From Pseudomonas anuradhapurensis (GTDB lineage Bacteria > Pseudomonadota > Gammaproteobacteria > Pseudomonadales > Pseudomonadaceae), in assembly GCF_014269225.2 (NCBI RefSeq), contig NZ_CP077097.1, forward strand, positions 5,329,637-5,393,636: a stretch of 64,000 bases of DNA. Reading direction: 5' to 3'. Numbering within the stretch: the first letter of the stretch is position 1; each line of letters starts with the position of its first letter. The translations under genes and the position numbers were made by a program. Of this stretch, positions 29,260 to 45,802 are shown in pieces. The notes under the pieces were generated by a model that was not told the DNA's origin, made no database searches, and saw only the letters and a program-made list of their open reading frames with translations.

Positions 29260-29700
29260 TCAGCCAGTGGGATTGAGCAACTGCCACACTTGAATGAGCC
29301 CGACCAGGTGCACAAGGCCATACAGCAAGCATATTGCCGAGCTGACCACGATGAAACGGCCACTGCGCCCGGTACCAGCCAGAGCAAAAGGCCCGAGTAC
29401 ACCGCGTAACAGGTAGATTACGGTAATGGCGATCAGCGCCGGCCGTAACAGCGGCAATGGATCGACCACTCCGGCTCCCGACAGGGCATAAACGCCCCAG
29501 GTAGCGAGAACCAGGGCGATGCCCGCCGTTACTACCGCCGGATACCAGCGCCCAGCCTGGGCCGCACGCACGAAACGCTCGCCTGCGCCGAACAGGCGAT
29601 ACCACGATGGCCCCACCAGGATTACCCCCACGTGCAGGATCGACGCCAGCAGGCTAAGCCCCGCGGCCAGCAGCAAAGCGGTGTTGTAGTCATTCGACAT
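29260..29700 (-). CDS. Four-span membrane protein of unknown function
   Basis: This 146-residue protein has four hydrophobic segments (LLLAAGLSLLASILHVGVIL, YPAVVTAGIALVLATWGVYA, LLRPALIAITVIYLLRG and FIVVSSAICLLYGLVHLVGL). The start is ATG 29700, preceded by AAGGAGA at good spacing. It lies just downstream of the biosynthetic cluster and I believe it is a core gene of the group. The function is unknown. Confidence 0.8.
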   Translation of the reverse strand: MSNDYNTALLLAAGLSLLASILHVGVILVGPSWYRLFGAGERFVRAAQAGRWYPAVVTAGIALVLATWGVYALSGAGVVDPLPLLRPALIAITVIYLLRGVLGPFALAGTGRSGRFIVVSSAICLLYGLVHLVGLIQVWQLLNPTG

Positions 29701-29778
29701 ATCATCTCTCCTTGATGAATTGCACGGCGCCAGCTGCCTCATGCACTACAGGGCGTTATCGACCGACATTGGGTGGGC

Positions 29779-31425
29779 TCAAGTGCTCGCCTGGGCCTCG
29801 GCACGCGTGCCGACATCCATGATCTGGTAGCGTAGCTTGCGCCCGTCGACAGCGGCAGCGGCTTCGACACCACCCGTCATAGCGCCGAATATCCCGTGCC
29901 CGGTGCGGGTGGATGCGCCACACAAGAACAGGTTTCGTATTTCGGTTTTGGTACCCGGCCGATTATGCAGGAAGTACTCAGGAGTGAATGCCAGGCCATA
30001 AGATGTCCCCCCGGCTGAACCGATGAAACGGGTCACCGAGAACGGAGTGGAGACTTCCTGATACACGATATGCTGCGACATATCTGGTATCACGCGTTCA
30101 GCCAGTGCAATCAGTTGCCGGGCATACCATTCCTTTTTCGCCAGGTACGCCGGGTTGTTCCGATAGCTGCCATCCGCTACCTCGGCCTGGGTAACACCCC
30201 AGCTTTCCGGGTTCGAAGGAACTGCCGACATCAATTGCAGGTTGTAGATGCCAGGCGGGGCAATGGCCGGATTGTCCGGGTCCTTCATCGTGGCGTTACC
30301 GATGAACAGATGCGGCTCATCCGGGAATTGACCGGCGAACACCTCACGGTAGGCACGCTCATAGTCGCAACCGGGATAGATGCGATAGTTGGTGTTTTTA
30401 AAGCCCATCGCCTTCAGGTCCATATCGATGCCCAGGTAAACCACGCCCATGGCCGGCGACATTTCGAAACGCTCTGCCCTGGTGACGGTCTTCGCCTTGA
30501 GCTGGTCCCGTCCGATCAAGTCCAGCAAGGTGTGCTTGATGTCGGCGTTGCAGATCACCGCGTCTGCCTTGACCGTACGTTTGCCCAGATGCTTGTTGCT
30601 GAATTCGACACCTACCGCGCGGCCCTTCTCGACCAGGATACGTTCGACCTTGGAACGCAGCAGGATCTTTCCTCCGTTGCGTTCGACAACCGCGCCGAGT
30701 TTGTCAGAGAACATCTGGCCCCCTCCCGAAGGGTAATACGACCCTTGCAGGAAGTGGTTGACCACCGCAGCGTGGCCAGCCATGGTCGCCCTGCTGGGAG
30801 GCTGATGGTAAACGCCGAGCTGTCCGGTCAGGATGGCGCGCAGTCGCTGATCATGGGTGCAGGTGTCGAGGAACTGGGCAACCGTCGATTTCGAATGGCG
30901 CATCAGCATCCACGAACGTGGCAGCACCCACAGCGCGGAGAGCGGCCGGGAGTGGATGCCCATGAAGTCCCAGACTTGCTGCAGCATCTTGAAATAGCGG
31001 TTGATGCCGGATTTTTCCTTGGGGAACGCTTCGATAAGCCTTTCCCGGAAGCGCTCATATCCACGCGGCACGGCAAATTGAAAATCGGGGAAGCAGAGGG
31101 TTTCGAAACCTTCTGGATCCTGCTCGATAAAATTGATTTCGCCATCATCGATGCCGGCCCCGCGCAAAATACGCGGGATCAACCCGTCCTTGCCACAGTC
31201 GCCGATGTAATGAAGACCTACGTCGAACTCGTAATCCTTGCCCTTACGATGAAAGACCGTGGCGCAGCCCCCCATCTCATAGTGCATGTCCAGCACCAAT
31301 ACCTGCTTGCCACGATTGGCGAGGGTCGCGGCTGCGGTCAGTCCACCAATGCCGGCACCCACGACAATCACGTCGAAGGTATCGCTTTCCAGCGTCTTGA
31401 AGCGGTCATAGCTTTGCATGGGCAT
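29779..31425 (-). CDS. Phytoene-desaturase/retinol-saturase-like flavoprotein (1 of 3)
   Basis: This 548-residue protein has an N-terminal FAD-binding GAGIGGLTAAATLANRGKQV motif, then MGGCATVFHRKGKDYEFDVG, typical of the CrtI/retinol saturase/carotenoid isomerase superfamily. Its C-terminal CGASTRTGHGIFGAMTGGVE is the second FAD-contacting region. It is the last gene of the operon and lies 15 bp after the ferredoxin gene. Members desaturate, saturate or isomerise polyene chains. The substrate is not deducible, but an ACP-bound acyl chain fits the context. Confidence 0.85.
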   Translation of the reverse strand: MPMQSYDRFKTLESDTFDVIVVGAGIGGLTAAATLANRGKQVLVLDMHYEMGGCATVFHRKGKDYEFDVGLHYIGDCGKDGLIPRILRGAGIDDGEINFIEQDPEGFETLCFPDFQFAVPRGYERFRERLIEAFPKEKSGINRYFKMLQQVWDFMGIHSRPLSALWVLPRSWMLMRHSKSTVAQFLDTCTHDQRLRAILTGQLGVYHQPPSRATMAGHAAVVNHFLQGSYYPSGGGQMFSDKLGAVVERNGGKILLRSKVERILVEKGRAVGVEFSNKHLGKRTVKADAVICNADIKHTLLDLIGRDQLKAKTVTRAERFEMSPAMGVVYLGIDMDLKAMGFKNTNYRIYPGCDYERAYREVFAGQFPDEPHLFIGNATMKDPDNPAIAPPGIYNLQLMSAVPSNPESWGVTQAEVADGSYRNNPAYLAKKEWYARQLIALAERVIPDMSQHIVYQEVSTPFSVTRFIGSAGGTSYGLAFTPEYFLHNRPGTKTEIRNLFLCGASTRTGHGIFGAMTGGVEAAAAVDGRKLRYQIMDVGTRAEAQAST

Positions 31426-31440
31426 TCGTCCAGGGGCACT

Positions 31441-31812
31441 TCAAGCGTGCTGCAGATGGTGGTCGCGGGTCGGATCGACCGCTTCGGCTTCGCGCACGAG
31501 GTGTGCAAGTTTGTTCGGCTGGTGACTCCACTTCTGGTAATCGCCCAGCGGTGGGATGCTCTGGAGAATGACGGGCCAATGTTGTGCAAGCTCGGCATTC
31601 AACGCCAGGAAGTGCCGATTACCGTCATCCAGGCGGTTCTCCGGCAGAATCGCCTCTTCAGGGCATTCCGGCAGGCAGAGACCACAATCGACGCATGCCT
31701 CCGGGTTGATCACGATGAAGTTCGGCCCCAGGTGGAACGCGTCTGCAGGGCATATATCCACACAGTTGGTGTGTCGGCACTGGATGCAGTTGTCAGTCAC
31801 TACATAAGTCAT
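31441..31812 (-). CDS. Ferredoxin, two-cluster FdxA-like
   Basis: This 123-residue protein has two Cys-rich motifs, CIQCRHTNCVDICP and CVDCGLCLPECP, giving sites for two iron-sulfur clusters as in seven- or eight-iron ferredoxins. A C-terminal extension of about 50 residues follows. The dedicated gene between two flavoprotein genes suggests it supplies or accepts electrons for the desaturase-like enzymes or for the diiron oxygenase. Confidence 0.9.
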   Translation of the reverse strand: MTYVVTDNCIQCRHTNCVDICPADAFHLGPNFIVINPEACVDCGLCLPECPEEAILPENRLDDGNRHFLALNAELAQHWPVILQSIPPLGDYQKWSHQPNKLAHLVREAEAVDPTRDHHLQHA

Positions 31813-31852
31813 GGTTAGTCTCTCGAGGTCGCATTTACGGGCACATCACCGC

Positions 31853-33358
31853 CTAGAAGTAGCGGTCAACCAACAAGCGGGCAGACAACATCGTTCCGAT
31901 GAAGCCCGCACCAGGGAACGTCCAGGCGCCCACCTGGTAGAGCCCCTTTACCGGATACTTCTGCGGAAAACGGTTGAACAGTCCGGACTGTTGAGGCGTT
32001 TGTTCGAAGCCGTAGATCGCACCCTGGGGGTTCTGGGTGAACTTGGTCATGGTGCGCGGAGAGCCTGCTTCACAAACTTCGATGTGGTCGCGCAGGCCTG
32101 GAATGACGCGCTCGGCATTAGCGATCAACAAGTCGGTCAGCGCGGCTTTCTTGCGGCGGTAAGCCAGTTTGTCCAGCGAGTGCCAGACGTCGGGGCCGGT
32201 CAGGGTGAACAGGCCAAGGCTGGACTTTCCAGGTGGCACCATGGACGGGTCGACATTGGAGAAGTAGTTGATCGACCAGCTGGTGTTGTCCTGATGCAGC
32301 TCGCCTGCCTGGATATGTTCGAATTGCGTGCGCTGCGTTTTCCCGGGTGAGAAGAAGTGGATGTATTCCTCAGGGCCGACACCCAGTTCACTCAGCGGGC
32401 AATCCAGGCCCAGGTACACCTGGAAGCCGGATACCGAGAACTTCAGCTTGTCCAGCCGAGTGAGGTACTTGCTGGGGAAGTGCTGTTTTCCTGCCAAGCC
32501 CACCACGGCATGCGGGGAAACATTGGCCACCACGTTGCGGGCCTTCACCGGCCCCGATCTGCGCGTGACAACGCCGGTGACCCTGCCTCGGTCGACCAAT
32601 ATCTGCTGGACTCCCGACTCCAGTTCGACACGGCCGCCGTGCGCCTCGATAACCTCGACCAATGCCGAGGAAAGCGCCTGCGAGCCGCCTTTGATCGAAT
32701 AGCCGCCGTTTTCCAGATAGTCGATGAAGGGGTACGAGAAATAGCCGAATGCCAGGTCTTTCGCCGGCAGCCCGTAGTAGCTCCACTGCGCCGACAGTAC
32801 TTCCTTCAGGCGTTCGTTGCGGGTGAACCTGGAAAAGTACTTATCCACCGTTTCATGGCCATAGCGCAGGACCCGCGGATAGGCGAAGGGGGTAGCGACA
32901 AATCGCATCCAGAACGGTTTGGGTGAATAAAGGAAGCCACACAGGTCCTTGTAGTTGCGCTTGGACTCGGCGAACAACCGATCGATGTTGTCGATTTCTT
33001 CGGGGAAGCAGCGATACAGGGTCTGTTTGTAACCTTCCAGGTCGCGGTGCCCGACGGTGATGTCGATATCGGGAGAACGGTAGCGATAGAGCGTCGGATG
33101 ATGGAGAAACTCGACCTTGTCCGCGACGCCACAAGCCTCGATCACCTTGAATGAATGCGCACCGCGGACCACCCCATCGAACGAATGCAGAGACACATCG
33201 AAGGTGAAGTCTTTACGACGAAAATTGCTCGCGTAACCACCGGGTATATTGTGCTTTTCTACCACCAGGACCTTCTGGCCCCGTTGGGCCATCAGGCTGG
33301 CGCTGGCGAGCGCGCCCAGCCCTGATCCTACAAAAACAGTATCGTATGATTGACTCAT
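31853..33358 (-). CDS. Phytoene-desaturase-like flavoprotein (2 of 3)
   Basis: This 501-residue protein has FAD-binding GSGLGALASASLMAQRGQKV and the superfamily motif PGGYASNFRRKDFTFDVSLH. The C-terminal GAWTFPGAGFIGTMLSARLL is the second FAD motif. ATG 33358 is preceded by CGGAG at six bases, which favours it over the earlier in-frame ATG at 33376. It is clearly a different subtype from the other two flavoproteins of the cluster, so the three are not recent duplicates. Confidence 0.85.
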   Translation of the reverse strand: MSQSYDTVFVGSGLGALASASLMAQRGQKVLVVEKHNIPGGYASNFRRKDFTFDVSLHSFDGVVRGAHSFKVIEACGVADKVEFLHHPTLYRYRSPDIDITVGHRDLEGYKQTLYRCFPEEIDNIDRLFAESKRNYKDLCGFLYSPKPFWMRFVATPFAYPRVLRYGHETVDKYFSRFTRNERLKEVLSAQWSYYGLPAKDLAFGYFSYPFIDYLENGGYSIKGGSQALSSALVEVIEAHGGRVELESGVQQILVDRGRVTGVVTRRSGPVKARNVVANVSPHAVVGLAGKQHFPSKYLTRLDKLKFSVSGFQVYLGLDCPLSELGVGPEEYIHFFSPGKTQRTQFEHIQAGELHQDNTSWSINYFSNVDPSMVPPGKSSLGLFTLTGPDVWHSLDKLAYRRKKAALTDLLIANAERVIPGLRDHIEVCEAGSPRTMTKFTQNPQGAIYGFEQTPQQSGLFNRFPQKYPVKGLYQVGAWTFPGAGFIGTMLSARLLVDRYF

Positions 33359-33401
33359 GAATGCTCCGGGCATCACCGCACAGCAGATCGCGCAAGGCGA
33401 A

Positions 33402-34157
33402 TCAGGCCGTCAGGCCACCGTCGATCAGGAAGGTCTGGCCAGTGATGTAGTCGGCTTGCGGTGACAACAGGAAGCTGGCCAATGCAGCAACTTCGTGTAC
33501 TTCGCCGAAGCGCTTGAGGGGGATGTTGTCGGTGATCGACTTGCGCACGTGATCGGGGATCTGGTCGATCATGTCCGTGGCGATGTAGCCGGGAGCAATG
33601 GCATTGACATTGATCTTGAAGCGCGCCAGTTCCAACGCCATGGTCTTGGTAATCCCGATCATCGCGGCCTTGGTTGCGGAATAACCCAATTGGCCCTTGT
33701 TTCCCTTGACGCCACTGACGGAGGACATGTGCAAAATCTTGCCCCGCCGCTCACCAGCCATGGCCGGGACCAACGACCTGCTGAAATAAACTGCCGAGTC
33801 GAGGTTGGTCGCAACCACGTCGCGATAGCGCTCGACGTCGAGGTTGAACAGCAGCTGGTCGCCAGTCACGCCCATGTTGTTGATCAAGCCATAGGGGCCG
33901 CCGAGATCGTTGACCAACTGTTCGCACAATGAACTGACCGACTGGAAGTCCCGACCGTCACAGGCATGCCCATGCGCACGGCCGCCGCTGGCGGCTACCT
34001 CCTGTTCGAGCTGGCGAGCAGCGTCAGCGGAGGACTGATAGGTGAACGCAACTTCATAACCTTCACGCGACAGGTGTTGTACAAGTGCGCGCCCTATACC
34101 GCGGGTACCGCCGCTGATGAGTATCCACTTGCCTTTGCCGAGCTGTTGGACATCCAT
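33402..34157 (-). CDS. Short-chain dehydrogenase, FabG-like ketoreductase
   Basis: This 251-residue SDR has the NADP motif SGGTRGIGRALVQHL, the NNMGV segment, catalytic Ser in HMSSVSGVKGN, and YSATKAAM with catalytic Tyr and Lys. The C terminus ITGQTFLIDGGLTA is typical of FabG. In context it should reduce beta-ketoacyl-ACP made by the KAS of the cluster. It lies 31 bp after the hydrolase gene. Confidence 0.9.
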   Translation of the reverse strand: MDVQQLGKGKWILISGGTRGIGRALVQHLSREGYEVAFTYQSSADAARQLEQEVAASGGRAHGHACDGRDFQSVSSLCEQLVNDLGGPYGLINNMGVTGDQLLFNLDVERYRDVVATNLDSAVYFSRSLVPAMAGERRGKILHMSSVSGVKGNKGQLGYSATKAAMIGITKTMALELARFKINVNAIAPGYIATDMIDQIPDHVRKSITDNIPLKRFGEVHEVAALASFLLSPQADYITGQTFLIDGGLTA

Positions 34158-34188
34158 GTTCTGTTTCCTTAAGTCAAAGAGCCCGTAG

Positions 34189-35028
34189 TCAGGCCGTTAC
34201 AACGGGTTTATGAGATTCAGCACGGGCGAAGAACGCGAAGATCTCCTGGAAGTACTGATCCCGGTGCTTCTTGTGGTTTTCCAGGTGGCGACACGCTTCG
34301 AAGCCGACCACATGCAGGGATGTGCAATCCAGGCTCAGCCTTGCCACGCTCGCCTCTGGGATATAGCGGTCACTCAACCCGTAGAAGTAGGCGATTGGCA
34401 GGTGCTGAACATGCTTCAGGGAATGGTCGATCGCACAGGTACCGGTAGGCACTGCCAGACGGCTCCCGCTGATCCAGCGCATGGCGAGGCGCAACGGACC
34501 ACGCGTGAAATAGCTGCGAACCGAGACAGGCACACTGTCCAGGACGGCCGAGGTGAAGGGCGAGGCGTCACGTGCCAAGGCATGTGACAGGTGGTAGCCA
34601 CCGAATGAGCAGCCGACCAGGTGAATCGGCAGGCCTGGGTATTCCCGTGCGATCTTTCGCGCAATGGACAAGACGTCATCGGCGAATGCATGACCACCGA
34701 TGGTGCTGCGCCCGAAGCCTTTGAAGTTGAAGGCAACGACGTGGTAGCCCTGTTCCAGGAACGCCTGATCGATGCCGTTCTCGAAAAAGTAATGCATGCC
34801 ATATTTCAAGAACGGATGGCACAGCAGCACGACACCCTTGGCTTTGGCTGGGTTGGCCAGCAGTACCGCCCCCTCCAGCTTGCTGCCGTCGCTGGCCGTC
34901 TCAACGAAGCCCTCGGCCCGGCTGGGCACGTCGCGCTTCCACCCTTGTACCTGCCTGAACATCACGCGAATGAACAGTTTGGAAACGGCGACCCCAAACC
35001 AGCTGGGCGAGTGTGCATGCGTTGTCAT
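34189..35028 (-). CDS. Alpha/beta hydrolase
   Basis: This 279-residue hydrolase has the nucleophile elbow GCSFGGYH near residue 135 and the oxyanion region LLCHPFLKYGMHYFF. A C-terminal HLENHKKH segment provides candidate catalytic His residues. The start at ATG 35028 overlaps the upstream stop as ATGA and has GGAG six bases before it. In context it could release the product from ACP as a thioesterase or cleave an ester; this is inference. Confidence 0.85.
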   Translation of the reverse strand: MTTHAHSPSWFGVAVSKLFIRVMFRQVQGWKRDVPSRAEGFVETASDGSKLEGAVLLANPAKAKGVVLLCHPFLKYGMHYFFENGIDQAFLEQGYHVVAFNFKGFGRSTIGGHAFADDVLSIARKIAREYPGLPIHLVGCSFGGYHLSHALARDASPFTSAVLDSVPVSVRSYFTRGPLRLAMRWISGSRLAVPTGTCAIDHSLKHVQHLPIAYFYGLSDRYIPEASVARLSLDCTSLHVVGFEACRHLENHKKHRDQYFQEIFAFFARAESHKPVVTA

Positions 35029-36548
35029 GCCCGTCTCCATTGCCTGGCTTTCATCTCGGCATAGCCAAAGGCGGCTTCATAACTTGGGCCCGCGACCCAA
35101 GCGCTGAGAAACTGCACGCCCTGCACCGGGAAGCCATGGTGGAAGACATGCCCTTTGAGGTCGGTACCGACCATCGCCCCGTAGCCAGAGCCATCGGTGT
35201 TGTTGGTGAAGCGCACATAGGTATGCGGGGTAGCCACTTCGGTATGCAAAATGTGGCCACGCAGCTGAGGAACCTGGACCAGCAGCCGCTCTACCAGCAC
35301 CTCACACGCGCGTTGCTTTTTCGCGCGATATTGCGCCGTACGCCGGGCAGGCCAATGGGCGATGGAATCAAGCACGTTGATACACACGACCTTGCCGCCA
35401 GCGGGTGCCAGGGCGTGATAGTTGGTGACCTCGATCGGGGACATCGCCCAGAAGGCCTGTTCGCAGAGCTCTGGCTGAAAACCGCTGCGCTCGGCGTCGA
35501 TGCGCAGCTCGGCTGCCAACGCGGGGTCCGCAGCAAACAGCATCGACTCGCTATGCCGCAGCCCAAGCTGTGCGGGCGCTTGATCGGTGGTCAGGTACAC
35601 CGTGGTGGTCGAGCGTGCCGGCTTCAACGCGGCCAGTTTCTCTCGGGTGCTCGTCAGGTCCACATCCGCCTGGAACAAGTGCTCCACCGCATAATGGGGC
35701 GAGGTATTGATGAACACCTGTGGCGCATGAAACTCACCGGCCCGGGTGCGTACCCCCGTGACATTGCCGTTGCTGTCGGTGGTCACTTCTTCTACAGGCG
35801 TGCTGAGCATGATCTTGCCCCCAGCCTGTTCGACCTGCTGCGCCAGCAGGTCGGACAGGCGCTGGGACGAGCCTGCAACGTAGGCGTTGCCGCGATTGAG
35901 CGTGGCATACACCACGTGCAGGTAGTACAGGTAGCCCAGGTCCTCCGAGTAGCCACCGACATAAATGCCAGGGGCTGCCAGGATTTCAATCAGGTAGGGG
36001 TCATCGAACAACTCGTGCAACGCCTCACGCACGGTCTTGTGCTTGAGGTTACGATGGGCCCAGCGCAACTGCGCCATGTCAGGCTCGAAACTGCCATCGA
36101 GCATCTGGAACTGGTAGTAGCCGTTGCGCCCATAGGTGCGTACCTGAGTGAAAAAGGTAACCAAGCGCTCTGCCTGATGAGGGAACCGTTCGATCAGTTG
36201 CCGTTCGACCTGGTCGGCATCGTTAGCCAACGGCAGCGCCGTGCCGTTCTGGTAGGCGCAGAAATAGTCGTTGGGGTAGACCAGGTTCAGTTCATCCTCA
36301 AGGCCCAGATCCCGCAGGATGCGGATCAGGTTGCCGCCTTCCGACATACCGCTGAGCTTGTGCAGGCTGCAATCGAAGATCGCCGATTGCTTGGGCCGGC
36401 TGAACGTCGAGGCATAGCCCCCAACCACAATATGCTTGTCGAGCATCAGGACGCGTGCACCGCGATCACGCTTGACCAGCATGGCCGCGCAGGCCAGGCT
36501 CGTGATCCCGGTACCCACGAAGATCGCGTCCCAGGTCGAAGAACTCAT
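35025..36548 (-). CDS. Phytoene-desaturase-like flavoprotein (3 of 3)
   Basis: This 507-residue protein has an FAD motif slightly altered from the norm, VGTGITSLACAAMLVKRD. It is followed by VGGYASTFSRPKQSAIFDCSLHKL and a C-terminal GAWVAGPSYEAAFG-like region (seen as SAWVAGPSYEAAFGYAE). It overlaps the oxygenase gene by 4 bp and the hydrolase gene by 4 bp, so all three are translationally coupled. The third glycine of GxGxxG is replaced by Ser, which may alter cofactor binding. Confidence 0.83.
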   Translation of the reverse strand: MSSSTWDAIFVGTGITSLACAAMLVKRDRGARVLMLDKHIVVGGYASTFSRPKQSAIFDCSLHKLSGMSEGGNLIRILRDLGLEDELNLVYPNDYFCAYQNGTALPLANDADQVERQLIERFPHQAERLVTFFTQVRTYGRNGYYQFQMLDGSFEPDMAQLRWAHRNLKHKTVREALHELFDDPYLIEILAAPGIYVGGYSEDLGYLYYLHVVYATLNRGNAYVAGSSQRLSDLLAQQVEQAGGKIMLSTPVEEVTTDSNGNVTGVRTRAGEFHAPQVFINTSPHYAVEHLFQADVDLTSTREKLAALKPARSTTTVYLTTDQAPAQLGLRHSESMLFAADPALAAELRIDAERSGFQPELCEQAFWAMSPIEVTNYHALAPAGGKVVCINVLDSIAHWPARRTAQYRAKKQRACEVLVERLLVQVPQLRGHILHTEVATPHTYVRFTNNTDGSGYGAMVGTDLKGHVFHHGFPVQGVQFLSAWVAGPSYEAAFGYAEMKARQWRRA

Positions 36549-37444
36549 TGCCGCAGCCCCAACTTGTCGATCCAGGCGTAAATTTCGGCGAATCGAGCGT
36601 CGTTCAGTCGAGCATTGTTCGGTGAACGCCAGACCTCTTCGATCTTTGCCTTGTCATCCACTGCAATCGGGAACTCGAAGGAAGTGTGCAACGCGATCTC
36701 GGGGTTGTAGGTGAACATGTCGATCAGCGCCGGAATGATTTTCCGGCTCATGACTTTGACCTGGGCGATCGACTCAGCGCTGGCAGTCTCGAAGAAGGAC
36801 TCGCTGATCCAGCGGCCAAAGGCGATGTGCCGTGCCTCGTCATAGTGATGCTCACGGAACAGGGTGCGGGTCATCGGCTCTACCGCTGCGCCCTGGGAGG
36901 TGTGCATGGCGCCCATTTCGGCAACCCATTCGATCAACAGCGTGAACAACACGCCAACCGCCGGCTCCATTTTCGGCAGTGTCTGGGTCAGCAACTCATA
37001 GAGCCCGACCGGTGGGTTCCAGATCTGCAGGCCGGCCTTGGCCATGAAGCGCTTGAAGGTGAGGGTATGAACGATCTCTTCCTTGGAAAAGATCATCAGG
37101 TATTCCTGCAGGTCCGGCGAAATACGGTCATGGAACTGGGTGATGTAGCCCATGTACAACGGCGGAATGGTCTGCTCGAGCCAGATGAACATGGAAATGT
37201 CACGGCCCGTCTCGAGCCAGGCCAGTTCCAGCTTCTGGGCGTCGGTCAAGCCTTCGCAATAGCGCGTTCCGTTGATCCACAGATGCTCGGGATCCTTGGG
37301 GTAAAGGCTTCGATTGATGTCCTGGTCCCATGGCAGTACGGTCGCGTGGTCCATCGTCTTGTGATGCGACACTTCGCTTAACTTGCGAACCTTCGACTCC
37401 CTCGCCGGGGAAATAGCGAGCACACTATTGTTCAGCGTAGACAT
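36545..37444 (-). CDS. AurF-type diiron oxygenase
   Basis: This 299-residue ferritin-like protein has the AurF/CmlI pattern of iron ligands: FSKEEIVHTLTF, then IEWVAEMGAMH, then HHYDEARHIAFGRW. Characterised relatives oxidise aryl amines to nitro groups or hydroxylate carrier-bound substrates. ATG 37444 is chosen because GGAGGAG lies upstream; a longer frame would start at 37459. No amine-forming enzyme is visible in the cluster, so C-hydroxylation or another oxidation of the acyl chain is as likely as N-oxidation. Confidence 0.85.
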   Translation of the reverse strand: MSTLNNSVLAISPARESKVRKLSEVSHHKTMDHATVLPWDQDINRSLYPKDPEHLWINGTRYCEGLTDAQKLELAWLETGRDISMFIWLEQTIPPLYMGYITQFHDRISPDLQEYLMIFSKEEIVHTLTFKRFMAKAGLQIWNPPVGLYELLTQTLPKMEPAVGVLFTLLIEWVAEMGAMHTSQGAAVEPMTRTLFREHHYDEARHIAFGRWISESFFETASAESIAQVKVMSRKIIPALIDMFTYNPEIALHTSFEFPIAVDDKAKIEEVWRSPNNARLNDARFAEIYAWIDKLGLRQ

Positions 37445-37476
37445 TTCCTGCTCCTCCATGAATTGGGTACAGCGGC

Positions 37477-37743
37477 TCAGGCTTCGACGGCAGTCGATTC
37501 CTTGAGCTCGACGATGAATTCACAGAGCTGGCGCAAAGTGGCGATCTTGCGGGTGACGAACGAATCCGGGTTGATCGCCACGCCGATCTTCTTCTGCACG
37601 ACCACCTGCATCTCGACGAAGTCCAGGCTGTCGAACTCCATCGCTTCAATGGTGGTATCGAGGGTCACTTCGCTTTCCTCGACATCCTTGAGGTCCAGGA
37701 TCAGATCACGAACGATGGTGAATACTTGGTCAACAGTGGTCAT
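37477..37743 (-). CDS. Dedicated acyl carrier protein
   Basis: This 88-residue acidic protein has the phosphopantetheine site DSL in MEFDSLDFVEMQ at Ser39. It overlaps the hotdog gene by 4 bp and is separate from the housekeeping acpP. It would carry the growing chain for the cluster's KAS, SDR and oxidases. Confidence 0.93.
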   Translation of the reverse strand: MTTVDQVFTIVRDLILDLKDVEESEVTLDTTIEAMEFDSLDFVEMQVVVQKKIGVAINPDSFVTRKIATLRQLCEFIVELKESTAVEA

Positions 37744-38546
37744 TGTTTCGCTCCAGTGGGGTTGAGAACGGTCTTGATCATCAAGCCGAGGGTTATGGTC
37801 ATTACATGGCTGCCGCTGACGACGACTCCGAGGTCGAGGGTGCCGACGGCCTTGCCTGGTGTTTCGATCAAGAGAATGTTGTCGATCTCGCAGCGGATAT
37901 CGGATTGCAAGCTGCCCAACGAACGCAGATGCGTGCAGAACGTGATCTGGTGACTGGTCTGCACGACCAGGTGATTGGTGATGTCCTCGATACGCTCAGG
38001 AACCTGGCGTTGGGCAAATTGCCCGGACAGGCGCTCGAAGATCACCCCCAGATGGTTGCGGATGAAGTGGGAAAATATCAGCGCATCCAGTGCCACCCAG
38101 TCATCCAGCCCCTTGCCCAATCCTTCGCGAAACTGGGTGAGCCAAGCCTCGACATATTCCCGGTCAAGGGCGAAGCCTGGGGATTTCGACGCCCACGTTG
38201 GCGGCGCAACTTGCGAGACATGGCCGAGCACATGCTCGCTGTCACTGTTCTCGGAACGCAGCGTGAATGCCGTGCTTGCACTGCGCGGGCGGGTGGAAAG
38301 CGCGACAGGGCGGTTGCGCAGAACCGGCGCCTTCAGTAGCGCCTTGAACTGTACCCAGTCCTCATCGCGGCCATCGGCGGCACGCCCCATTTGATGTTTG
38401 ATTGGCAGCAGCGCCAGCATGCCGTGCACCACGACATCCGCGGCGTCCATGCGCCGCGCCGCTTCCAGGTCAAAGTGAATAGGGTTGCGATCGCCGGAAA
38501 GATCAGCCCACGCCTCGATCTGTTCAGGGCCAAATTGCCACTGCAT
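37740..38546 (-). CDS. MaoC-like hotdog protein, probable dehydratase
   Basis: This 268-residue protein begins with a MaoC-type active-site motif (WADLSGDRNPIHFDLEAARR, with the D and H of the hydratase dyad) and VVHGMLAL. The second half is a degenerate hotdog-like region. MaoC proteins hydrate enoyl or dehydrate hydroxyacyl thioesters. ATG 38546 lies two bases after the KAS stop; an overlapping TTG at 38552 is also possible. It probably dehydrates 3-hydroxyacyl-ACP. Confidence 0.75.
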   Translation of the reverse strand: MQWQFGPEQIEAWADLSGDRNPIHFDLEAARRMDAADVVVHGMLALLPIKHQMGRAADGRDEDWVQFKALLKAPVLRNRPVALSTRPRSASTAFTLRSENSDSEHVLGHVSQVAPPTWASKSPGFALDREYVEAWLTQFREGLGKGLDDWVALDALIFSHFIRNHLGVIFERLSGQFAQRQVPERIEDITNHLVVQTSHQITFCTHLRSLGSLQSDIRCEIDNILLIETPGKAVGTLDLGVVVSGSHVMTITLGLMIKTVLNPTGAKQ

Positions 38547-38548
38547 GA

Positions 38549-39817
38549 TCAATGCACCTTGCGCAGCATGATGCCGGCATTGGCGCCACCGAAGCCGAAG
38601 CTCAGGTTCAGCACGTTGTCCAGCTGCCGCCCGTGCAAGTGCTCGTTAGGTACGAAGTTCAGGTCGCACTCAGGATCGGCCTCATCCAGATGGATGGTTG
38701 CCGGGATCGTGCCACGGGCCATGGCTTTGAGGCAGAAGATCGCTTCCATCGAACCTGCTGCACCAATCAGGTGGCCGGTGTACGACTTGGTGCTGGACAT
38801 CGGAATGCCATGGGCAGCGTCGCCCAGCGCCAGTTTGATGGAGCGGGCTTCATTGACGTCGTTCAGCGGTGTGGAGGTGCCATGCAAGTTGATGTAATCG
38901 ATGTGCGGCGCATCGACATTGGCTTGCCTGCATACTTCCTGGATCACCCGCACGCGAGCCTGCATGTCCTCGGCCGGGGCCGTCATGTCGAAGGCGTCCG
39001 AGTAGTTGGCGTAGCCGGTGATTTCGCCGAGGATCTTGGCGCCGCGAGCCTTGGCCAGCTCATAATCCTCAAGGCACAGTACCGCCGCGCCTTCGGAAAG
39101 GATGAAACCGCTTCGCCCTTTGCTGAACGGGCAGCAAGCCAGGCGCGGGTTTTCCTGCTCTTTGCTCAGAGCCTGGATGACATCGATCGACCAGACGTTG
39201 AACTGCTCTTTCAACGATTCGCTGCCACCGGCGATCATCATTTTCGCGCGACCGGCACGAATCGCCTCATAAGCTTCGCCAATGGCGATGGTGCCCGTGG
39301 CGCACGCTGCCACCGGGCTGTTTTGAACACCACGCATGTTCCAGTTCATGGTGATGGCCGCCGTCGCGGCGTTGCACATCGACATGACCGTGGCGAACGA
39401 GGTGGAAATGCCTTGTTGGCAATATTCGTTGTTATTGAAGTTCGCCGTGTCCAGCCCTCCCCAACCGGTGCCGAGAACGACACCACGGTCGAACGGTGCG
39501 ACCACGTCATCCAGTGGTGTGTCGCCATAAGCCATGTGCAATGCTTCATGGGCCGCCACCAAGCTGTACTTGGCGAACAGAGGCAACATCTTGGAAATCT
39601 TCTTCGAGAACGGCCGCATGGCCTCGCGGCCGAAGTCGTCGATGAAACCGAAGAAGCGCGCATGGATAGTCGGGTCATCAAAACGGTGCAGACGATAGCC
39701 GATCTGGTAATCCATCATCGCGTCCCAGATGGCATCGGCGTTCTGGCCGAGCGAGCAGATCGCACCGTAACCAGTAACGACGACGCGGCGAGGTGCTGGA
39801 GAGGCTGGCTTTTCCAT
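38549..39817 (-). CDS. Beta-ketoacyl-ACP synthase (FabF-like KAS)
   Basis: This 422-residue thiolase-fold synthase has the catalytic triad: Cys near residue 171 in AACATGT, His near 312 in LHGTSTPLND and His near 347 in TGHLIGAAGSMEA. It ends with LSFGFGGANAGIML. All three residues are present, so it is an active condensing enzyme and not a chain-length factor; no partner KAS is present. It is the first gene of the operon, 206 bp from lux box 1. Confidence 0.93.
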   Translation of the reverse strand: MEKPASPAPRRVVVTGYGAICSLGQNADAIWDAMMDYQIGYRLHRFDDPTIHARFFGFIDDFGREAMRPFSKKISKMLPLFAKYSLVAAHEALHMAYGDTPLDDVVAPFDRGVVLGTGWGGLDTANFNNNEYCQQGISTSFATVMSMCNAATAAITMNWNMRGVQNSPVAACATGTIAIGEAYEAIRAGRAKMMIAGGSESLKEQFNVWSIDVIQALSKEQENPRLACCPFSKGRSGFILSEGAAVLCLEDYELAKARGAKILGEITGYANYSDAFDMTAPAEDMQARVRVIQEVCRQANVDAPHIDYINLHGTSTPLNDVNEARSIKLALGDAAHGIPMSSTKSYTGHLIGAAGSMEAIFCLKAMARGTIPATIHLDEADPECDLNFVPNEHLHGRQLDNVLNLSFGFGGANAGIMLRKVH

Positions 39818-40023
39818 GGTCTTCCCTGATTGATGTGCTGGCGTGACAACCCGTGTATGAACAAGGGCGGCATTGAGTGCAGGCGCTAACTGCCAGGGCC
39901 GAACATACGAGGGTTTTCGATACCCATCGCAACCGTGTGCCTGGCAAATAACGTCTTGTAAGTTGTGAAAACTGGCGTCCTACACAACGACCCGGGAAGT
40001 GTGCCCAATTCTGCGATGGCAAC

Positions 40024-40043
40024 AACTGTATCTAGGTACAGGC
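40024..40043. promoter_or_regulatory. lux box 1
   Basis: On the minus strand GCCTGTACCTAGATACAGTT matches the Vibrio fischeri lux box arms ACCTGTA-N6-TACAGGT at 12 of 14 positions. It lies nearer to the KAS operon. I could not see a convincing -10 at standard distance on that side. Confidence 0.7.
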
Positions 40044-40046
40044 GCT

Positions 40047-40066
40047 CGGTATTTGCCGAAATACCG
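40047..40066. promoter_or_regulatory. Perfect palindrome between the two lux boxes
   Basis: CGGTATTTGCCGAAATACCG is an 8+8 inverted repeat with a 4-nt centre. It sits between the two lux boxes and could be an operator for a separate regulator or a hairpin. No repressor gene such as rsaL is visible between luxI and luxR. Confidence 0.6.
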
Positions 40067-40073
40067 ACGGGCT

Positions 40074-40093
40074 GCATGCACTTAAGTACAGGT
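40074..40093. promoter_or_regulatory. lux box 2 with luxI promoter
   Basis: On the minus strand ACCTGTACTTAAGTGCATGC matches lux box arms at 11 of 14 positions, with a perfect ACCTGTA half. A -10-like TAGAAT lies at 40114-40119. The implied start site near 40126 puts the box centre at -42.5, the standard position for LuxR-type activation. It is 50 bp from lux box 1, centre to centre. Confidence 0.7.
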
Positions 40094-40199
40094 TGCTCAG
40101 CGCCGACAGTTGATAGAATCAGCAGGTTGTATTTCGAAGGGCATGCTGTATACCAACGCCCACGCGACCGCCATACCTGAGGCAAGGGAACAGCCCAAT

Positions 40200-40868
40200 A
40201 TGATAACTATCGACTTTCACAAGATTGAATACCGTCGTGACCCACATCCTTGGGTTGCCGAGTTGTACGGCTTACGCAAGCATGTTTTCTGTGATCGCCT
40301 TAATTGGAAAGTCACGGTGAGAAATGGCATTGAATTGGATGAATATGACAACTGGAACACGACGTATCTGGTTGGCACTTGCCAAGGCATACCGTTGGCG
40401 GGGCTGCGCCTGATCAACACGCTACACCCTTATATGGTTGAAGGTCCCTTTCGCGATTTCTTCAGTTGCACACCGCCCAAGCGGGCCTTGATGGCTGAAT
40501 CCAGCCGCTTCTTCGTCGATAAGACCCGTTCACGCAAGTTGGGCCTGGCGCACTTGCCATTGACCGAAATGTTGCTTTTCAGCATGCATGACCACGGCGA
40601 ACTGACCGGCTTGAAATCGATCGTCACCGTGGTCAGCGATGCCATGGCACGCATCGTTCGACAGGCCGGCTGGCACTACCAGATTCTCGACAGCGGCGAG
40701 GCGTCGCCGGGTGAGACGGTGCATTTGCTGGACATGCCGATCAGTTCGTCCAACCGCCTGCGACTGCTCGAAAGCATTGCGCGCAAGCAACCGCTGTCAT
40801 CACTGCAGACCCAGCAATGGCCGTTGAGCCTGCAGTTGCACGATGTATCCGACAACCACATCGCCTGA
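40200..40868 (+). CDS. LuxI-family acyl-homoserine lactone synthase
   Basis: This 222-residue protein keeps the residues conserved in LuxI synthases: Arg and Phe in LRKHVF, Trp in LNW, the DEYD acidic pair, RLINT, and ESSRFF with Glu and Arg. Such enzymes join an acyl-ACP to S-adenosylmethionine to make an AHL signal. ATG 40200 follows AAGGGA by ten bases. The gene converges on luxR with no gap, a common LuxI/LuxR arrangement. The acyl chain length is not predictable here. Confidence 0.92.
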   Translation: MITIDFHKIEYRRDPHPWVAELYGLRKHVFCDRLNWKVTVRNGIELDEYDNWNTTYLVGTCQGIPLAGLRLINTLHPYMVEGPFRDFFSCTPPKRALMAESSRFFVDKTRSRKLGLAHLPLTEMLLFSMHDHGELTGLKSIVTVVSDAMARIVRQAGWHYQILDSGEASPGETVHLLDMPISSSNRLRLLESIARKQPLSSLQTQQWPLSLQLHDVSDNHIA

Positions 40869-41591
40869 TCAGATGATGCCCTGTCGCTTGGCCTCGTAGA
40901 CGGCTTGCTTGGCGTTGCCGACCTGCAATTTGCCAGAAATGTTCGACATGTGGAATTTCACTGTGCGCTCTGAAATTCCACAGTCCGTGGCAATTTCGCG
41001 GTAGGTCTTGCCGCGCATGACCAGTTGCAGCACGCCCAGTTCGCGGGTGGAAAGCGGCCCATCGGCTGCACTGGAAAACAGCTGATCGGTTTTGCGCGAG
41101 GTCATCAGCCAACTATGAAATTTGATCAGCAGCATTTGCAGCTGGCTTTGCTGCTTGGCCATACGTCGATCAAAATCCACTTGCGAACCCGCATCGCACA
41201 CACTCAAGGCACAGAAGGTTCCGGACGCATCGCGCAGGGTAAACGTGGTACCCGAGCAGATTCGATAACGGGTAGCGCGCCTGAAAAAGTCCACGCCTTC
41301 GGGACCGCTGTTGGCAAGGGCTTCGTGCCAAGAGAAAGGTGTGATCTCCCTCAGCCCATGCTTGATGATTGGGTCGATCAGATAGCTCTTGTTATCTTTA
41401 TAGCTTTTAACCCAGCTCGGTGGGTAATTTGAAATGATAATCGGCTCTACATTGCGATTATGAGTAGCGGCGTAGTACGCATATTTCAAATCTTTCACAT
41501 CACACAATTGAAGCTGCAGCTCGTCATGCAGGTATGTGATGGGGTGGTTTTTATCGCATGTAGTGGCTGCGTCCCGGTTTCGACTGTCCAT
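40869..41591 (-). CDS. LuxR-family AHL receptor/activator
   Basis: This 240-residue regulator has an autoinducer-binding domain with the conserved NYPPSW, SYLIDP and PFSW residues. A C-terminal LuxR helix-turn-helix contains LSTRELGVLQLVMRGKTYREIA and ERTVKFHMSN. ATG 41591 follows AGGAA by seven bases and gives the usual length; the frame is open to 41672. It should activate luxI and the biosynthetic operon through the lux boxes. The gene is more AT-rich than neighbouring core genes. Confidence 0.92.
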   Translation of the reverse strand: MDSRNRDAATTCDKNHPITYLHDELQLQLCDVKDLKYAYYAATHNRNVEPIIISNYPPSWVKSYKDNKSYLIDPIIKHGLREITPFSWHEALANSGPEGVDFFRRATRYRICSGTTFTLRDASGTFCALSVCDAGSQVDFDRRMAKQQSQLQMLLIKFHSWLMTSRKTDQLFSSAADGPLSTRELGVLQLVMRGKTYREIATDCGISERTVKFHMSNISGKLQVGNAKQAVYEAKRQGII

Positions 41592-41611
41592 GTCGTGTTC
41601 CTGCCGTTTCT

Positions 41612-41646
41612 CACGGCGCGATAAATGGCAAAGCCATTGCGCCGTG
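41612..41646 (-). promoter_or_regulatory. Strong hairpin in the luxR 5' leader
   Basis: CACGGCGC and GCGCCGTG form an 8-bp stem around an inner ATGGC-AAA-GCCAT stem, ending 20 bp before the luxR start. There is no T-run on the minus strand. It might affect luxR translation or transcript stability. Confidence 0.5.
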
Positions 41647-41848
41647 CAAATCATTTTAGAGTTGTTGCTCAAAAATCGTGAGCCTCGGATTACCGCGCAA
41701 GCGTGATAGTCGGTGATATTAAAATGTGAGTCAATGTGGATGCTGGAACTCTGTTTATCCGTTTGTCGTGGCTATCGCGATTACGACCAAGGTACGTGTC
41801 GCATGTGACATATAGATTGCGACTTTCGGATAAGTTCCATTCAGCGTT

Positions 41849-42457
41849 TTATTTGCTAGCCGACGCCATCAGAATACCAAAGCAAAAGAAGGTGATTCCG
41901 GAGAGCTTGCCGACGATTCGCGCGCCACGGTTGGTCGACAACCAGCCCCTGGCGCCATTGGCCATCAGCGCGTAGCCGGTGTGCACCAACACGACGAGCA
42001 AGGCATAGGACGAAACCAACAGGAAGAACTGCCGGTAGTAGTTGTCCTGGGGGCTGATGAATTGCGGAAACACCGCCAGGAAGAAGAATCCGGCCTTGGG
42101 ATTCAGCAGCTGGATCGACAACGCTTCGACGAAGCGCCGCCAGGGTTGCGTGGCGGTCACGGCGAGCTCCGGGATGAAACGCTGGGTACGCCACATCTTC
42201 ACGCCCAAGTACAACAAGTACAACGCGCCGACGTACTTGAGTACGGTGAACGCCGTTGCCGAGGTCGCCAGAACCAACCCCACACTACTGGCCGAGAGCC
42301 CAGCGACGATGAAAGCGCCCAAGGCGATACCGAAGATCCCCGGCAGGGCACCGCTCCAGCCATGGCGCAGGGCATTGGAGAGGGTCAGCACCACCCCGGG
42401 GCCGGGGCTCAATACGGTAAGGGTCGCGAGGATGAGAAACAGTCCATAACTGGCCAT
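41849..42457 (-). CDS. LysE-family translocator
   Basis: This 202-residue membrane protein has six hydrophobic segments. The LysE/RhtB signature LTVLSPGPGVVLTLSNALRHG is near the N terminus and LNPKAGFFFLAVFPQFI is in the middle. The family exports amino acids and related small molecules, including homoserine and homoserine lactone in some members. It adjoins the luxR gene on the same strand, but a link to quorum sensing is speculative. Confidence 0.9.
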   Translation of the reverse strand: MASYGLFLILATLTVLSPGPGVVLTLSNALRHGWSGALPGIFGIALGAFIVAGLSASSVGLVLATSATAFTVLKYVGALYLLYLGVKMWRTQRFIPELAVTATQPWRRFVEALSIQLLNPKAGFFFLAVFPQFISPQDNYYRQFFLLVSSYALLVVLVHTGYALMANGARGWLSTNRGARIVGKLSGITFFCFGILMASASK

Positions 42458-42964: not shown

Positions 42965-44800
42965 TTACTCCACAGTCACCGACTTGGCCAAGTTACGCGG
43001 CTGGTCCACATCCGTGCCCTTGAGCACCGCCACGTAGTAGGACAGCAGCTGCAACGGGATGGTGTAGAGGATCGGCGCCAGGGCATCGATGATGTGCGGT
43101 ACCTTGATCACGTGGGTGCCTTCGCCGTTGCTCATGCCGGCCTGCTCGTCGGCGAACACCACCAGCTCGCCACCACGGGCGCGCACCTCCTGCAGGTTGG
43201 ACTTGAGCTTTTCCAGCAGTTCATTGTTCGGCGCCACGGTAACCACTGGCATATCGTTGTCTACCAGGGCCAGCGGGCCGTGCTTGAGTTCGCCCGCCGG
43301 ATAGGCTTCGGCGTGGATGTAGGAGATCTCCTTGAGCTTGAGCGCTCCTTCCATGGCCACCGGGTACTGGGCACCACGGCCCAGGAACAGGGTGTGATGC
43401 TTGTCGGCGAACAGCTCGGCGGTCTTCTCGACGATGGCGTCCATCGCCAGCGCTTCGCCCAGGCGGGCCGGCAGGCGGCGCAGCTCCTCCACCAGCTCGG
43501 CCTCGACACCGGCTTGCAGGGTACCGCGCACCTGGCCCAGGGCCAGGGTCAGCAGCATCAGCGAAACCAGCTGGGTAGTGAAGGCCTTGGTCGAGGCTAC
43601 GCCGATTTCCGGGCCGGCCAGGGTCAGCAGGGTCAGGTCGGATTCACGCACCAGCGAGCTGATGCCTACGTTGCAGATCGCCAGGCTGCCCAGGAAGCCC
43701 AGCTCCTTGGCGTTGCGTAGCGCTGCCAGGGTGTCGGCGGTTTCGCCGGACTGGGAGATGGAGACGAACAGGGTGTCCGCTTGCACTACAACCTTGCGGT
43801 AGCGGAATTCGCTGGCCACTTCCACCTGGCAAGGTATGCCCGCCAGTTCTTCCAGCCAGTAGCGGGCCACCATGCCGGCGTGATAGCTGGTGCCACAGGC
43901 AACGATCTGTACGTTACGCACCTTGGCGAACAGCTCGGCAGCCTGTGGGCCAAAGGCCTGGACCATGACGTGATCCTTGCCCAGGCGGCCTTCCAGGGTG
44001 CGCTGCACTACGCTTGGCTGCTCGTGAATTTCCTTGAGCATGAAGTGGCGATAGGTGCCCTTGTCGGCCGCTTCGGCGCCTTCGTGGTACTGCACGGTCT
44101 CACGCTGTACCTTGTGCCCGGCCTGGTCCCAGATGCTCACTTGGTCACGGCGGATCTCGGCGATATCGCCTTCTTCGAGGTACATGAAGCGGTCGGTGAC
44201 CTGGCGCAGCGCCAATTGGTCGGAGGCCAGGAAGTTTTCACCCAGCCCCAGGCCGATGACCAGCGGGCTGCCGCTGCGTGCCGCCACCAGGCGGTCGGGT
44301 TGGTTGGCACTGACCAGCGCCAGGCCGTAGGCGCCATGCAGGCGCTTCACCGCGGCCTTGAGCGCATCGGTGAGGTCAGGAACGAGCTTGAGGGTGTGAT
44401 GGATCAGGTGGACGATGACTTCGGTATCGGTCTGCGAACTGAAGACGTAGCCAAGGCCCTTCAGTTCCTCGCGCAGTTCTTCATGGTTCTCGATGATGCC
44501 ATTGTGTACCACCGCCACCGTGTCGCTGGAGAAGTGCGGGTGGGCGTTGCCTTCGGTCGGCGCACCGTGGGTAGCCCAGCGGGTATGGGCGATGCCCAGC
44601 TGCCCGGACAGTGGCTCGGCGGCAACCGCAGCTTCCAGCTCGCTGACCTTGCCGATACGGCGGCGGCGCTGCAGTTCACCGTTCTGGGTGAGCACGGCCA
44701 GGCCGGCGCTGTCGTAGCCGCGGTACTCAAGACGCTTGAGGCCTTCGATCAGGATGGCTGTGATGTTGCGTTCGGCGACGGCACCAACGATTCCACACAT
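42965..44800 (-). CDS. glmS: Glutamine-fructose-6-phosphate aminotransferase
   Basis: GlmS makes glucosamine 6-phosphate for cell-wall synthesis. The 611-residue protein has the N-terminal nucleophile Cys2 in [12 protein letters not shown] and the [10 protein letters not shown] glutaminase motif. Two SIS domains follow with the [15 protein letters not shown] motif. The C terminus [11 protein letters not shown] is the conserved TnsD target region at the DNA level. It follows glmR by 3 bp, so no glmS ribozyme is present. Confidence 0.97.
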
Positions 44801-45771: not shown

Positions 45772-45802
45772 CAAAACTTATCCAAAATGGATGGGCCGCC
45801 CA

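What the first reader, a model, noticed from the sequence alone, without database searches (positions are those of the whole stretch)
29779..41591. Quorum-sensing-linked cluster with KAS, ACP, AurF-type oxygenase and three phytoene-desaturase-like enzymes
The sequence shows ten coupled genes combining a minimal type II fatty-acid/polyketide set with three distinct CrtI-like flavoproteins, a ferredoxin, an AurF-type diiron protein and a hydrolase, beside luxI and luxR. CrtI-like enzymes with type II synthases are known from ladderane-lipid and cinnamoyl-lipid (skyllamycin-type) pathways, where they desaturate or aromatise polyenes. I know of no described Pseudomonas pathway with this set. The product is inferred to be an oxidised polyunsaturated, cyclised or aromatised acyl compound.
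Basis: partly seen in the sequence, partly recalled or inferred. Interest (0 to 1): 0.95.

Follow-up and report, generated by a model that had tools for sequence, protein, structure and literature searches.

The report
Signal-linked benzene-ring fatty acid pathway
A ten-gene Pseudomonas operon, sitting beside cell-density signal genes and shared with a few distant bacteria, likely folds a fatty chain into a benzene ring to make lahorenoic-acid-type compounds, and would be the missing target of the AurI/AurR signal system.

Summary
In detail: ten intact, tightly packed genes (KAS, MaoC, ACP, AurF-type diiron protein, CrtI-like C, hydrolase, FabG, CrtI-like B, FdxA, CrtI-like A) lie beside a divergent luxI and a luxR, with a near-perfect lux-box-like palindrome before KAS. 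Twenty fetched relatives share a core in the same order; 11 hold all ten genes, including Pseudomonas and Pseudoalteromonas rubra S2471. Published aurI/aurR primers of P. chlororaphis match luxI/luxR beside the operon in three relatives with 0-2 mismatches, so these are AurI/AurR orthologues, whose targets were reported unknown. P. chlororaphis makes lahorenoic acids (C16 ortho-dialkyl aromatic acids); P. rubra is, from memory, the source of similar rubrenoic acids. A hexanoyl starter, five extensions, ring closure and loss of 2H give C16H20O2 (lahorenoic acid C); plus O gives A. My reading, about 0.7: a proteobacterial route to ortho-dialkylbenzene acids with one ketosynthase and no chain-length factor. 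No phytoene synthase was found in the window genome, which argues against a carotenoid role. Product and enzyme roles are inferred, not shown. The operon was noticed before (P. chlororaphis GP72, guessed 'terpenoid').

The parts
38549..39817 (-). KAS: FabF-like beta-ketoacyl-ACP synthase, the only ketosynthase of the operon; Cys172, His312, Lys344 and His349 invariant in 10 of 10 aligned sequences (window included)
   Evidence: 38% and 35% to the two other KS matches in the genome
37740..38552 (-). MaoC-type dehydratase, TTG start; Asp21/Asn23/His26 invariant in 9 of 9 aligned sequences (window included)
37477..37743 (-). acyl carrier protein with DSL phosphopantetheine site
36545..37459 (-). 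AurF-type diiron protein; E95, E128, H131, E177, H204, E208, H211 (probable metal ligands, assigned from memory of AurF) invariant in 43 of 43 aligned sequences
   Evidence: model pLDDT 95.7; fold matches CmlI, AurF, R2lox, R2
35025..36548 (-). CrtI_C: CrtI-like flavoprotein of the core, present in all 20 cluster loci
   Evidence: model closest to 4rep gamma-carotenoid desaturase
34189..35040 (-). alpha/beta hydrolase with GCSFG nucleophile motif; likely product release
33402..34157 (-). FabG-type ketoreductase with S-Y-K residues
31853..33376 (-). CrtI_B: CrtI-like flavoprotein, in 11 of 20 loci
31441..31812 (-). FdxA-type ferredoxin (8 Cys), likely electron donor of the diiron protein
   Evidence: (NF045490 above cut-off)
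29779..31425 (-). CrtI_A: CrtI-like flavoprotein, in 11 of 20 loci; 85% to the protein of 'uncultured proteobacterium QS1'
29260..29742 (-). small hydrophobic protein 36 bp behind CrtI_A; relatives found in 13 of 20 loci by BLAST, and DUF3995 proteins follow the ferredoxin gene in L012 and L013
   Evidence: the window's own copy has no Pfam hit
40200..40868 (+). luxI-type AHL synthase, AurI orthologue
   Evidence: PF00765; aurI primers of PMC7048289 at 2 and 3 mismatches in the window, 0-2 in L001, L003, L004
40869..41591 (-). luxR-type AHL receptor/regulator, AurR orthologue
   Evidence: PF03472 + PF00196; aurR-F primer 1 mismatch at 40909, aurR-R without a match in luxR
40026..40041 (.). lux-box-like near-palindrome, CTGTACCTAGATACAG on the minus strand, 7 of 8 pairs symmetric, between luxI and the KAS operon
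   Evidence: identical in 5 of 10 intergenic regions, an exact CTG-N10-CAG in 9 of 10

Best explanation
This is a quorum-sensing-linked operon that likely makes lahorenoic/rubrenoic-type ortho-dialkyl aromatic acids, it would seem by building an acyl-ACP polyene and closing part of it into a benzene ring. Shown: the ten intact genes, the AurI/AurR-type pair beside them, the conserved lux-box-like site, the shared core, and no phytoene synthase hit in the genome. Inferred: AurR with its AHL would control the operon by cell density. KAS, FabG and the MaoC dehydratase would extend a C6 acyl starter on the dedicated ACP five times without enoyl reduction, giving a C16 pentaene. CrtI-like enzymes would set one double bond to Z so that carbons 4-9 close by 6-pi electrocyclisation, and would take away 2H to form the benzene ring. 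The AurF-type diiron protein, fed by FdxA, would act on the acyl chain and is the best candidate for the extra oxygen of lahorenoic acid A. The hydrolase would release the free acid. Which CrtI does which step is not known.
Against: No gene-to-product experiment was seen. The operon was not checked by sequence in the lahorenoic producers themselves (PB-St2, ARS-38, 16A1, 16B1, 23aP); the link rests on GP72's gene list and on aurI in PB-St2. That rubrenoic acids are ortho-dialkyl acids from Alteromonas (Pseudoalteromonas) rubra is recalled; PMC10054270 names them among 'this type of compound' in a sentence that also lists a quinone, and S2471 is (as far as I recall) not the strain of isolation. 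No CLF and no recognisable dedicated isomerase is present, unlike the described actinomycete route. AurF and CrtI_C are also in nine loci without CrtI_A and CrtI_B, so their role cannot lie only in the aromatic acids. One of the two ligase-linked AurF relatives (L037) also lies near a chorismate-binding enzyme and a class IV aminotransferase, a setting that could equally suit p-aminobenzoate. PA23 qPCR showed aurI up and aurR down in an AHL-free strain (PMC7048289), so the sense of control is unsettled. The C6 starter was chosen because it fits the formula.
Confidence: 0.7

Rival explanations
1. The operon makes a linear, oxygenated polyene acid; no benzene ring is formed, and the three CrtI-like enzymes isomerise or saturate double bonds.
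For: KS+KR+DH+ACP without ER suffices for a polyene. JGI names several CrtI_A and CrtI_C relatives all-trans-retinol 13,14-reductases. Core-only clusters (9 of 20 loci lack CrtI_A and CrtI_B) may well make such a product.
Against: Does not explain the coincidence of the full set with producers of ortho-dialkyl aromatic acids, nor what else would make the lahorenoic acids.
Confidence: 0.14
2. Polycyclic product by reductive cyclisation of a polyene, as done by CrtI-like enzymes in polycyclic tetramate macrolactam pathways.
For: Several CrtI-like genes act in series there (recalled); a set of three beside a polyene synthase looks alike.
Against: No gene long enough for a PKS-NRPS near the operon. 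No macrolactam cyclase sequence was obtained for comparison, so this is not tested.
Confidence: 0.06
3. Terpenoid or carotenoid pathway, as guessed for MOK_00955-00968 in P. chlororaphis GP72.
For: CrtI-like folds; the guess in PMC5594592.
Against: No phytoene/squalene synthase family hit in the window genome and in 6 of the 7 other Pseudomonas-type cluster genomes searched, nor in P. rubra (6 of 14 genomes have one); no CrtI-like protein reaches a carotenoid cut-off among the rows shown; the operon carries fatty-acid-type genes and an ACP.
Confidence: 0.02
4. N-oxygenation pathway: the AurF protein oxidises a nitrogen, giving a nitro, azoxy or diazeniumdiolate lipid.
For: Family PF11583 is named after an N-oxygenase, and the model matches CmlI and AurF. 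In Verminephrobacter a PLP decarboxylase sits beside the core (L016), and L037 has chorismate-type genes near its AurF relative.
Against: No amine-introducing gene in the operon; 12-16% identity to the solved N-oxygenases; AurF relatives beside AMP-binding ligases suggest acyl chains.
Confidence: 0.05
5. A modified membrane lipid (ladderane-like) rather than a secreted metabolite.
For: CrtI-like genes with FabF/FabG/ACP are proposed for ladderanes (recalled).
Against: RND-type export genes follow the full cluster in P. rubra and the MAG; AHL linkage suits a shared product. Ladderane genes were not compared.
Confidence: 0.03

Closest known systems
Highly reducing type II PKS of ortho-substituted cinnamoyl lipids (serpentene, youssoufene, skyllamycin side chain) in actinomycetes
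   Same: ACP-bound polyene made by KS/KR/DH; ortho-substituted benzene inside an unsaturated acid (PMC10054270, PMC9230751, passages and one introduction)
   Different: described there with KS plus CLF; here one KS only, a MaoC-type dehydratase, three CrtI-like enzymes, an AurF-type diiron protein with FdxA, and an AHL system beside it
Lahorenoic acids of P. chlororaphis subsp. aurantiaca PB-St2 and their unspecified candidate cluster
   Same: same genus, C16 formulas reproduced, AurI/AurR present in PB-St2
   Different: the cluster is not described in the text I read (PMC3900886, whole body and first 17 references); the link to this operon is mine
MOK_00955-MOK_00974 region (aurF, fabGZF, acpP, psyIR; QsyI/R in the text) of P. 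chlororaphis GP72, and 'uncultured proteobacterium QS1'
   Same: the same operon by gene content; QS1 protein 85% identical to CrtI_A of the window
   Different: deleted for genome reduction and guessed to be for terpenoids, not verified (PMC5594592)
AurI/AurR quorum-sensing system
   Same: luxI/luxR beside the operon match aurI/aurR primers in three relatives
   Different: targets reported as unknown (PMC5371074, PMC5115851); here the neighbouring operon with a lux-box-like site is proposed as target
AurF/CmlI arylamine N-oxygenases
   Same: Pfam family, conserved Glu/His set, R2-like fold
   Different: 12-16% identity; cluster setting suggests acyl substrates

Membership tests
Actinomycete-type HR type II PKS (cinnamoyl lipids) | KS and CLF pair | tested here: not met
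   one KS in the operon with full active site; three KS matches in the whole genome at E<=1e-3, the other two elsewhere in it
Actinomycete-type HR type II PKS (cinnamoyl lipids) | KR, DH and ACP, no ER | tested here: met
Actinomycete-type HR type II PKS (cinnamoyl lipids) | dedicated isomerase and dehydrogenase for ring formation | tested here: inconclusive
   CrtI-like proteins could serve; no reference sequences at hand
Actinomycete-type HR type II PKS (cinnamoyl lipids) | ortho-substituted benzene product | not testable with these tools
   needs LC-MS/NMR; formula agreement only
AurI/AurR quorum-sensing pair | LuxI and LuxR domains | tested here: met
AurI/AurR quorum-sensing pair | orthology to aurI/aurR of P. 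chlororaphis | tested here: met
   primer positions and orientation, 0-2 mismatches for all four primers in L001, L003, L004; in the window three of four at 1-3 mismatches, aurR-R without a match inside luxR. Primer stretches only; full aurI/aurR genes were not compared
AurI/AurR quorum-sensing pair | AurR controls the operon | not testable with these tools
   lux-box-like site only
AurF family (PF11583) | family profile and conserved Glu/His ligand set | tested here: met
AurF family (PF11583) | N-oxygenation of an amine | not testable with these tools
   needs enzyme assay
Carotenoid CrtI desaturases | curated phytoene desaturase family cut-off | tested here: not met
   155, 148 and 68 bits against TIGR02734 cut-off 238
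Carotenoid CrtI desaturases | phytoene synthase in the genome | tested here: not met
   no PF00494 match at E<=0.001 in G000
Ladderane cluster | anammox-type gene set | not tested
   no reference sequences fetched

The most novel reading that the evidence does not exclude
Proteobacteria build ortho-dialkyl benzene acids by their own route, apart from the actinomycete KS/CLF systems: a single FabF-like synthase makes the polyene, CrtI-type flavoenzymes fold and aromatise it, and an acyl-acting AurF-type diiron enzyme with its own ferredoxin oxidises it. One route would explain both lahorenoic acids (Pseudomonas) and rubrenoic acids (Pseudoalteromonas), and it would be the target of the orphan AurI/AurR signal system, drawing on the same C6 acyl pool as the signal itself.
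Probability: 0.55. Interest if true: 0.76.

Novelty: new variant of a known kind. Interest (0 to 1): 0.62.

Why it matters
It would give genes to two families of aromatic acids, lahorenoic and rubrenoic acids, with one gene set. It would supply the missing target of AurI/AurR in biocontrol pseudomonads. It would show a second way to make a benzene ring from a fatty chain, with a synthase that has no chain-length factor and with CrtI-like enzymes, and a role on acyl chains for the AurF diiron family. A single gene deletion in a biocontrol strain, with LC-MS for two known masses, decides it.

Tried and rejected

What I saw of papers: PMC5594592, PMC5115851, PMC5371074, PMC7048289, PMC11433735, PMC13273461, PMC9230751, PMC3944528, PMC6965584, PMC3566124, PMC3658600: passages only; PMC10054270: passages and the introduction; PMC3900886: whole body and the first 17 references. 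Other papers: search listings only. PMC3566124, PMC3944528 and PMC3658600 gave nothing for the question. The original lahorenoic paper and two cinnamoyl-lipid papers were asked for by DOI and are not held; the original rubrenoic paper was not looked for.
Full report
What is there. Ten minus-strand genes run from 39817 to 29779 with gaps of -16 to +40 bp: KAS, MaoC dehydratase, ACP, AurF-type diiron protein, CrtI_C, alpha/beta hydrolase, FabG, CrtI_B, FdxA, CrtI_A. A small hydrophobic protein follows 36 bp behind (29260-29742). luxI (40200-40868, plus strand) is divergent from KAS, and luxR (40869-41591, minus strand) is convergent with luxI, their stop codons abutting. Active sites look intact: KAS Cys/His/Lys/His (10 of 10 sequences), MaoC Asp/Asn/His (9 of 9), the AurF Glu/His set (43 of 43), FAD motifs of all three CrtI-like proteins, the ACP serine, the FabG S-Y-K and a GxSxG in the hydrolase.

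Relatives. A scan of genome contigs with the AurF protein gave 16 loci. With four longer stretches taken from genomes (L039, L040, L041, L062), 20 loci hold KAS, MaoC, ACP, AurF, CrtI_C and FabG, 19 of 20 also FdxA (none found in L062), all in the same order and on one strand. Several of the 3.9-kb loci from genome searches are the same or further clusters and are not counted here. Hydrolase, CrtI_B and CrtI_A are all present in 11 of 20: nine Pseudomonas-type loci (including Ap-967, labelled Pantoea), P. rubra S2471 and a gamma-proteobacterial MAG. Cy-639 (L007) has the hydrolase only. Two Stenotrophomonas, two Paraburkholderia, two Chromobacterium, Verminephrobacter and a second Pseudoalteromonas have none of the three in the locus.

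Distribution. AurF hits: 8 of 398 genomes of the window's genus (own genome included; the seven others all with KAS and CrtI_C beside); 2 of 369 of the class (own, and a weak AurF-only hit); 2 of 398 of the phylum (own, and L037, AurF only); 1 of 378 round Paraburkholderia (the centre itself); 4 of 61 round Chromobacterium (three clusters including the centre, and L038, AurF only); 1 of 119 round Stenotrophomonas (the centre itself); 2 of 56 Pseudoalteromonas-group genomes (P. rubra and the core-only L062). So the cluster is rare and scattered.

History. In a tree of four joined proteins from the window and 18 loci (L011 and L013 left out as near-copies), P. rubra and the MAG, both full, stand outside Stenotrophomonas (short), Cy-639 (short) and Pseudomonas (full), with support 100 for the whole group and 82 for the inner split; the core-only beta-proteobacteria and L062 lie outside (midpoint root). 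The simplest reading is one gain of the three extra genes followed by losses; moves between lineages are not excluded. Among the best 120 listed AurF relatives (of 305) and the best 120 listed CrtI_C relatives (of 177), 40 contig lengths coincide against 0.4 expected.

Signal system. Four published qPCR primers for aurR and aurI of P. chlororaphis PA23 (PMC7048289) fall inside luxR and luxI beside the operon in L001, L003 and L004, in the right order and direction, with 0-2 mismatches each. In the window aurR-F has 1, aurI-F 2 and aurI-R 3 mismatches at the right places, and aurR-R has no match in luxR. The csaR/csaI primers fit at 3-7 mismatches at scattered places. So the pair is AurI/AurR. 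Two papers state that the targets of this system are unknown (PMC5371074; PMC5115851). AurI makes C6- and 3-oxo-C6-HSL (same papers). Between luxI and KAS an exact CTG-N10-CAG stands in 9 of 10 regions examined (L005 has none); CTGTACCTAGATACAG, symmetric in 7 of 8 pairs, is identical in 5 of 10, and 4 of 10 carry two or more exact sites. Binding by AurR is inferred, and in PA23 the response of aurI and aurR to loss of AHL was mixed.

Product. P. chlororaphis PB-St2, ARS-38 and three endophytes make lahorenoic acids, ortho-dialkyl aromatic acids; A is C16H20O3 and C is C16H20O2 (PMC3900886, PMC6965584, PMC11433735). P. chlororaphis GP72 holds a region with this gene content (MOK_00955-00974: aurF, fabGZF, acpP, psyIR, and a phytoene dehydrogenase 89% identical to QS1), there guessed to be for terpenoids and not verified; 2-hydroxyphenazine rose in the strain in which it was deleted (PMC5594592). 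CrtI_A of my loci is 84-89% identical to the QS1 protein in the Pseudomonas-type clusters. The PB-St2 genome note speaks of a candidate lahorenoic cluster without naming it. PMC10054270 names rubrenoic acids among 'this type of compound', loosely; that they are ortho-dialkyl acids from Alteromonas rubra, now Pseudoalteromonas rubra, is my recall. P. rubra S2471 holds all ten genes. A hexanoyl starter with five malonyl units, ketoreduction and dehydration each time, ring closure and loss of 2H gives C16H20O2, and with one oxygen C16H20O3; fully unsaturated chains from acetyl or butyryl miss these formulas once aromatised. A heptenyl side chain on a cinnamic acid core, closed between carbons 4 and 9 as in youssoufenes (4,9-ortho ring, PMC9230751), would have this formula; I have not seen the published lahorenoic structures.

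Enzymes. No phytoene synthase family hit exists in the window genome, in 6 of 7 other Pseudomonas-type carriers, or in P. rubra (6 of 14 genomes have one), so the CrtI-like enzymes there probably have no carotenoid to act on. They are 23-31% alike among themselves, so separate jobs are likely. The AurF protein is 12-16% identical to solved N-oxygenases and shares the R2-like fold. Its 42% relatives in two other genomes stand beside an HxlR regulator and an AMP-binding ligase, one also beside an enoyl-CoA hydratase, with no CrtI there, which suggests acyl thioesters; but L037 also has a chorismate-binding enzyme, a class IV aminotransferase and fab-type genes within 10 kb, so the inference is soft. 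FdxA is the natural electron donor. Export by an RND pump is suggested in P. rubra and the MAG, where HlyD and AcrB-type genes follow; no such gene follows in the window.

Limits. No product has been tied to these genes by experiment that I could find in open-licence papers. The link rests on co-occurrence in two genera (one half recalled), AurI in a producer, and formula logic. The role of each CrtI and of AurF is a proposal. The core-only clusters probably make something else.

Verdict. It is a new variant of a known kind, with interest 0.62.

Noticed in passing
window 42965-44800 and 29260-42457: In the window and its 98% relative L040 the operon lies downstream of the 3' end of glmS, a known insertion hotspot (recalled); no glmS match in the other fetched loci. 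The 9-base Tn7-end motif has one match in the window, at 45796, not at the cluster's edge.
   Followed up: partly
L016:1-18585: Verminephrobacter carries the core with a PLP decarboxylase, two fatty-acid desaturases, an AMP-binding ligase, an MFS pump and a diverged luxI/luxR, as if an amine were added to the acyl product.
   Followed up: partly
L037:9435-12922 and L038:7202-10383: AurF relatives (42%) form a set with an HxlR regulator and an AMP-binding ligase, without CrtI: another diiron system whose job I did not look up.
   Followed up: partly
L062:6104-7747: A second Pseudoalteromonas has the core with an ABC transporter gene between CrtI_C and FabG.
   Followed up: no
L012:13939-14568: The Paraburkholderia core cluster is followed by an ICMT-type methyltransferase, which might methylate the product.
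   Followed up: no
L041 (C. violaceum-size chromosome): Chromobacterium violaceum holds the core operon; its product is unknown to me.
   Followed up: partly
L005:16031-17653: CrtI_A of Pseudomonas sp. TH31 has one in-frame stop within the aligned stretch; the public protein is 524 aa, so the C-terminus is probably just shorter.
   Followed up: no
window 41849-42457: LysE-type exporter gene between glmS and luxR; matched in L040 only among the fetched loci, so not clearly part of the cluster.
   Followed up: partly
window 26377-27561: Cyclopropane-fatty-acid-synthase-type methyltransferase near the operon; no match in the fetched loci, though the L040 stretch ends before that place.
   Followed up: no
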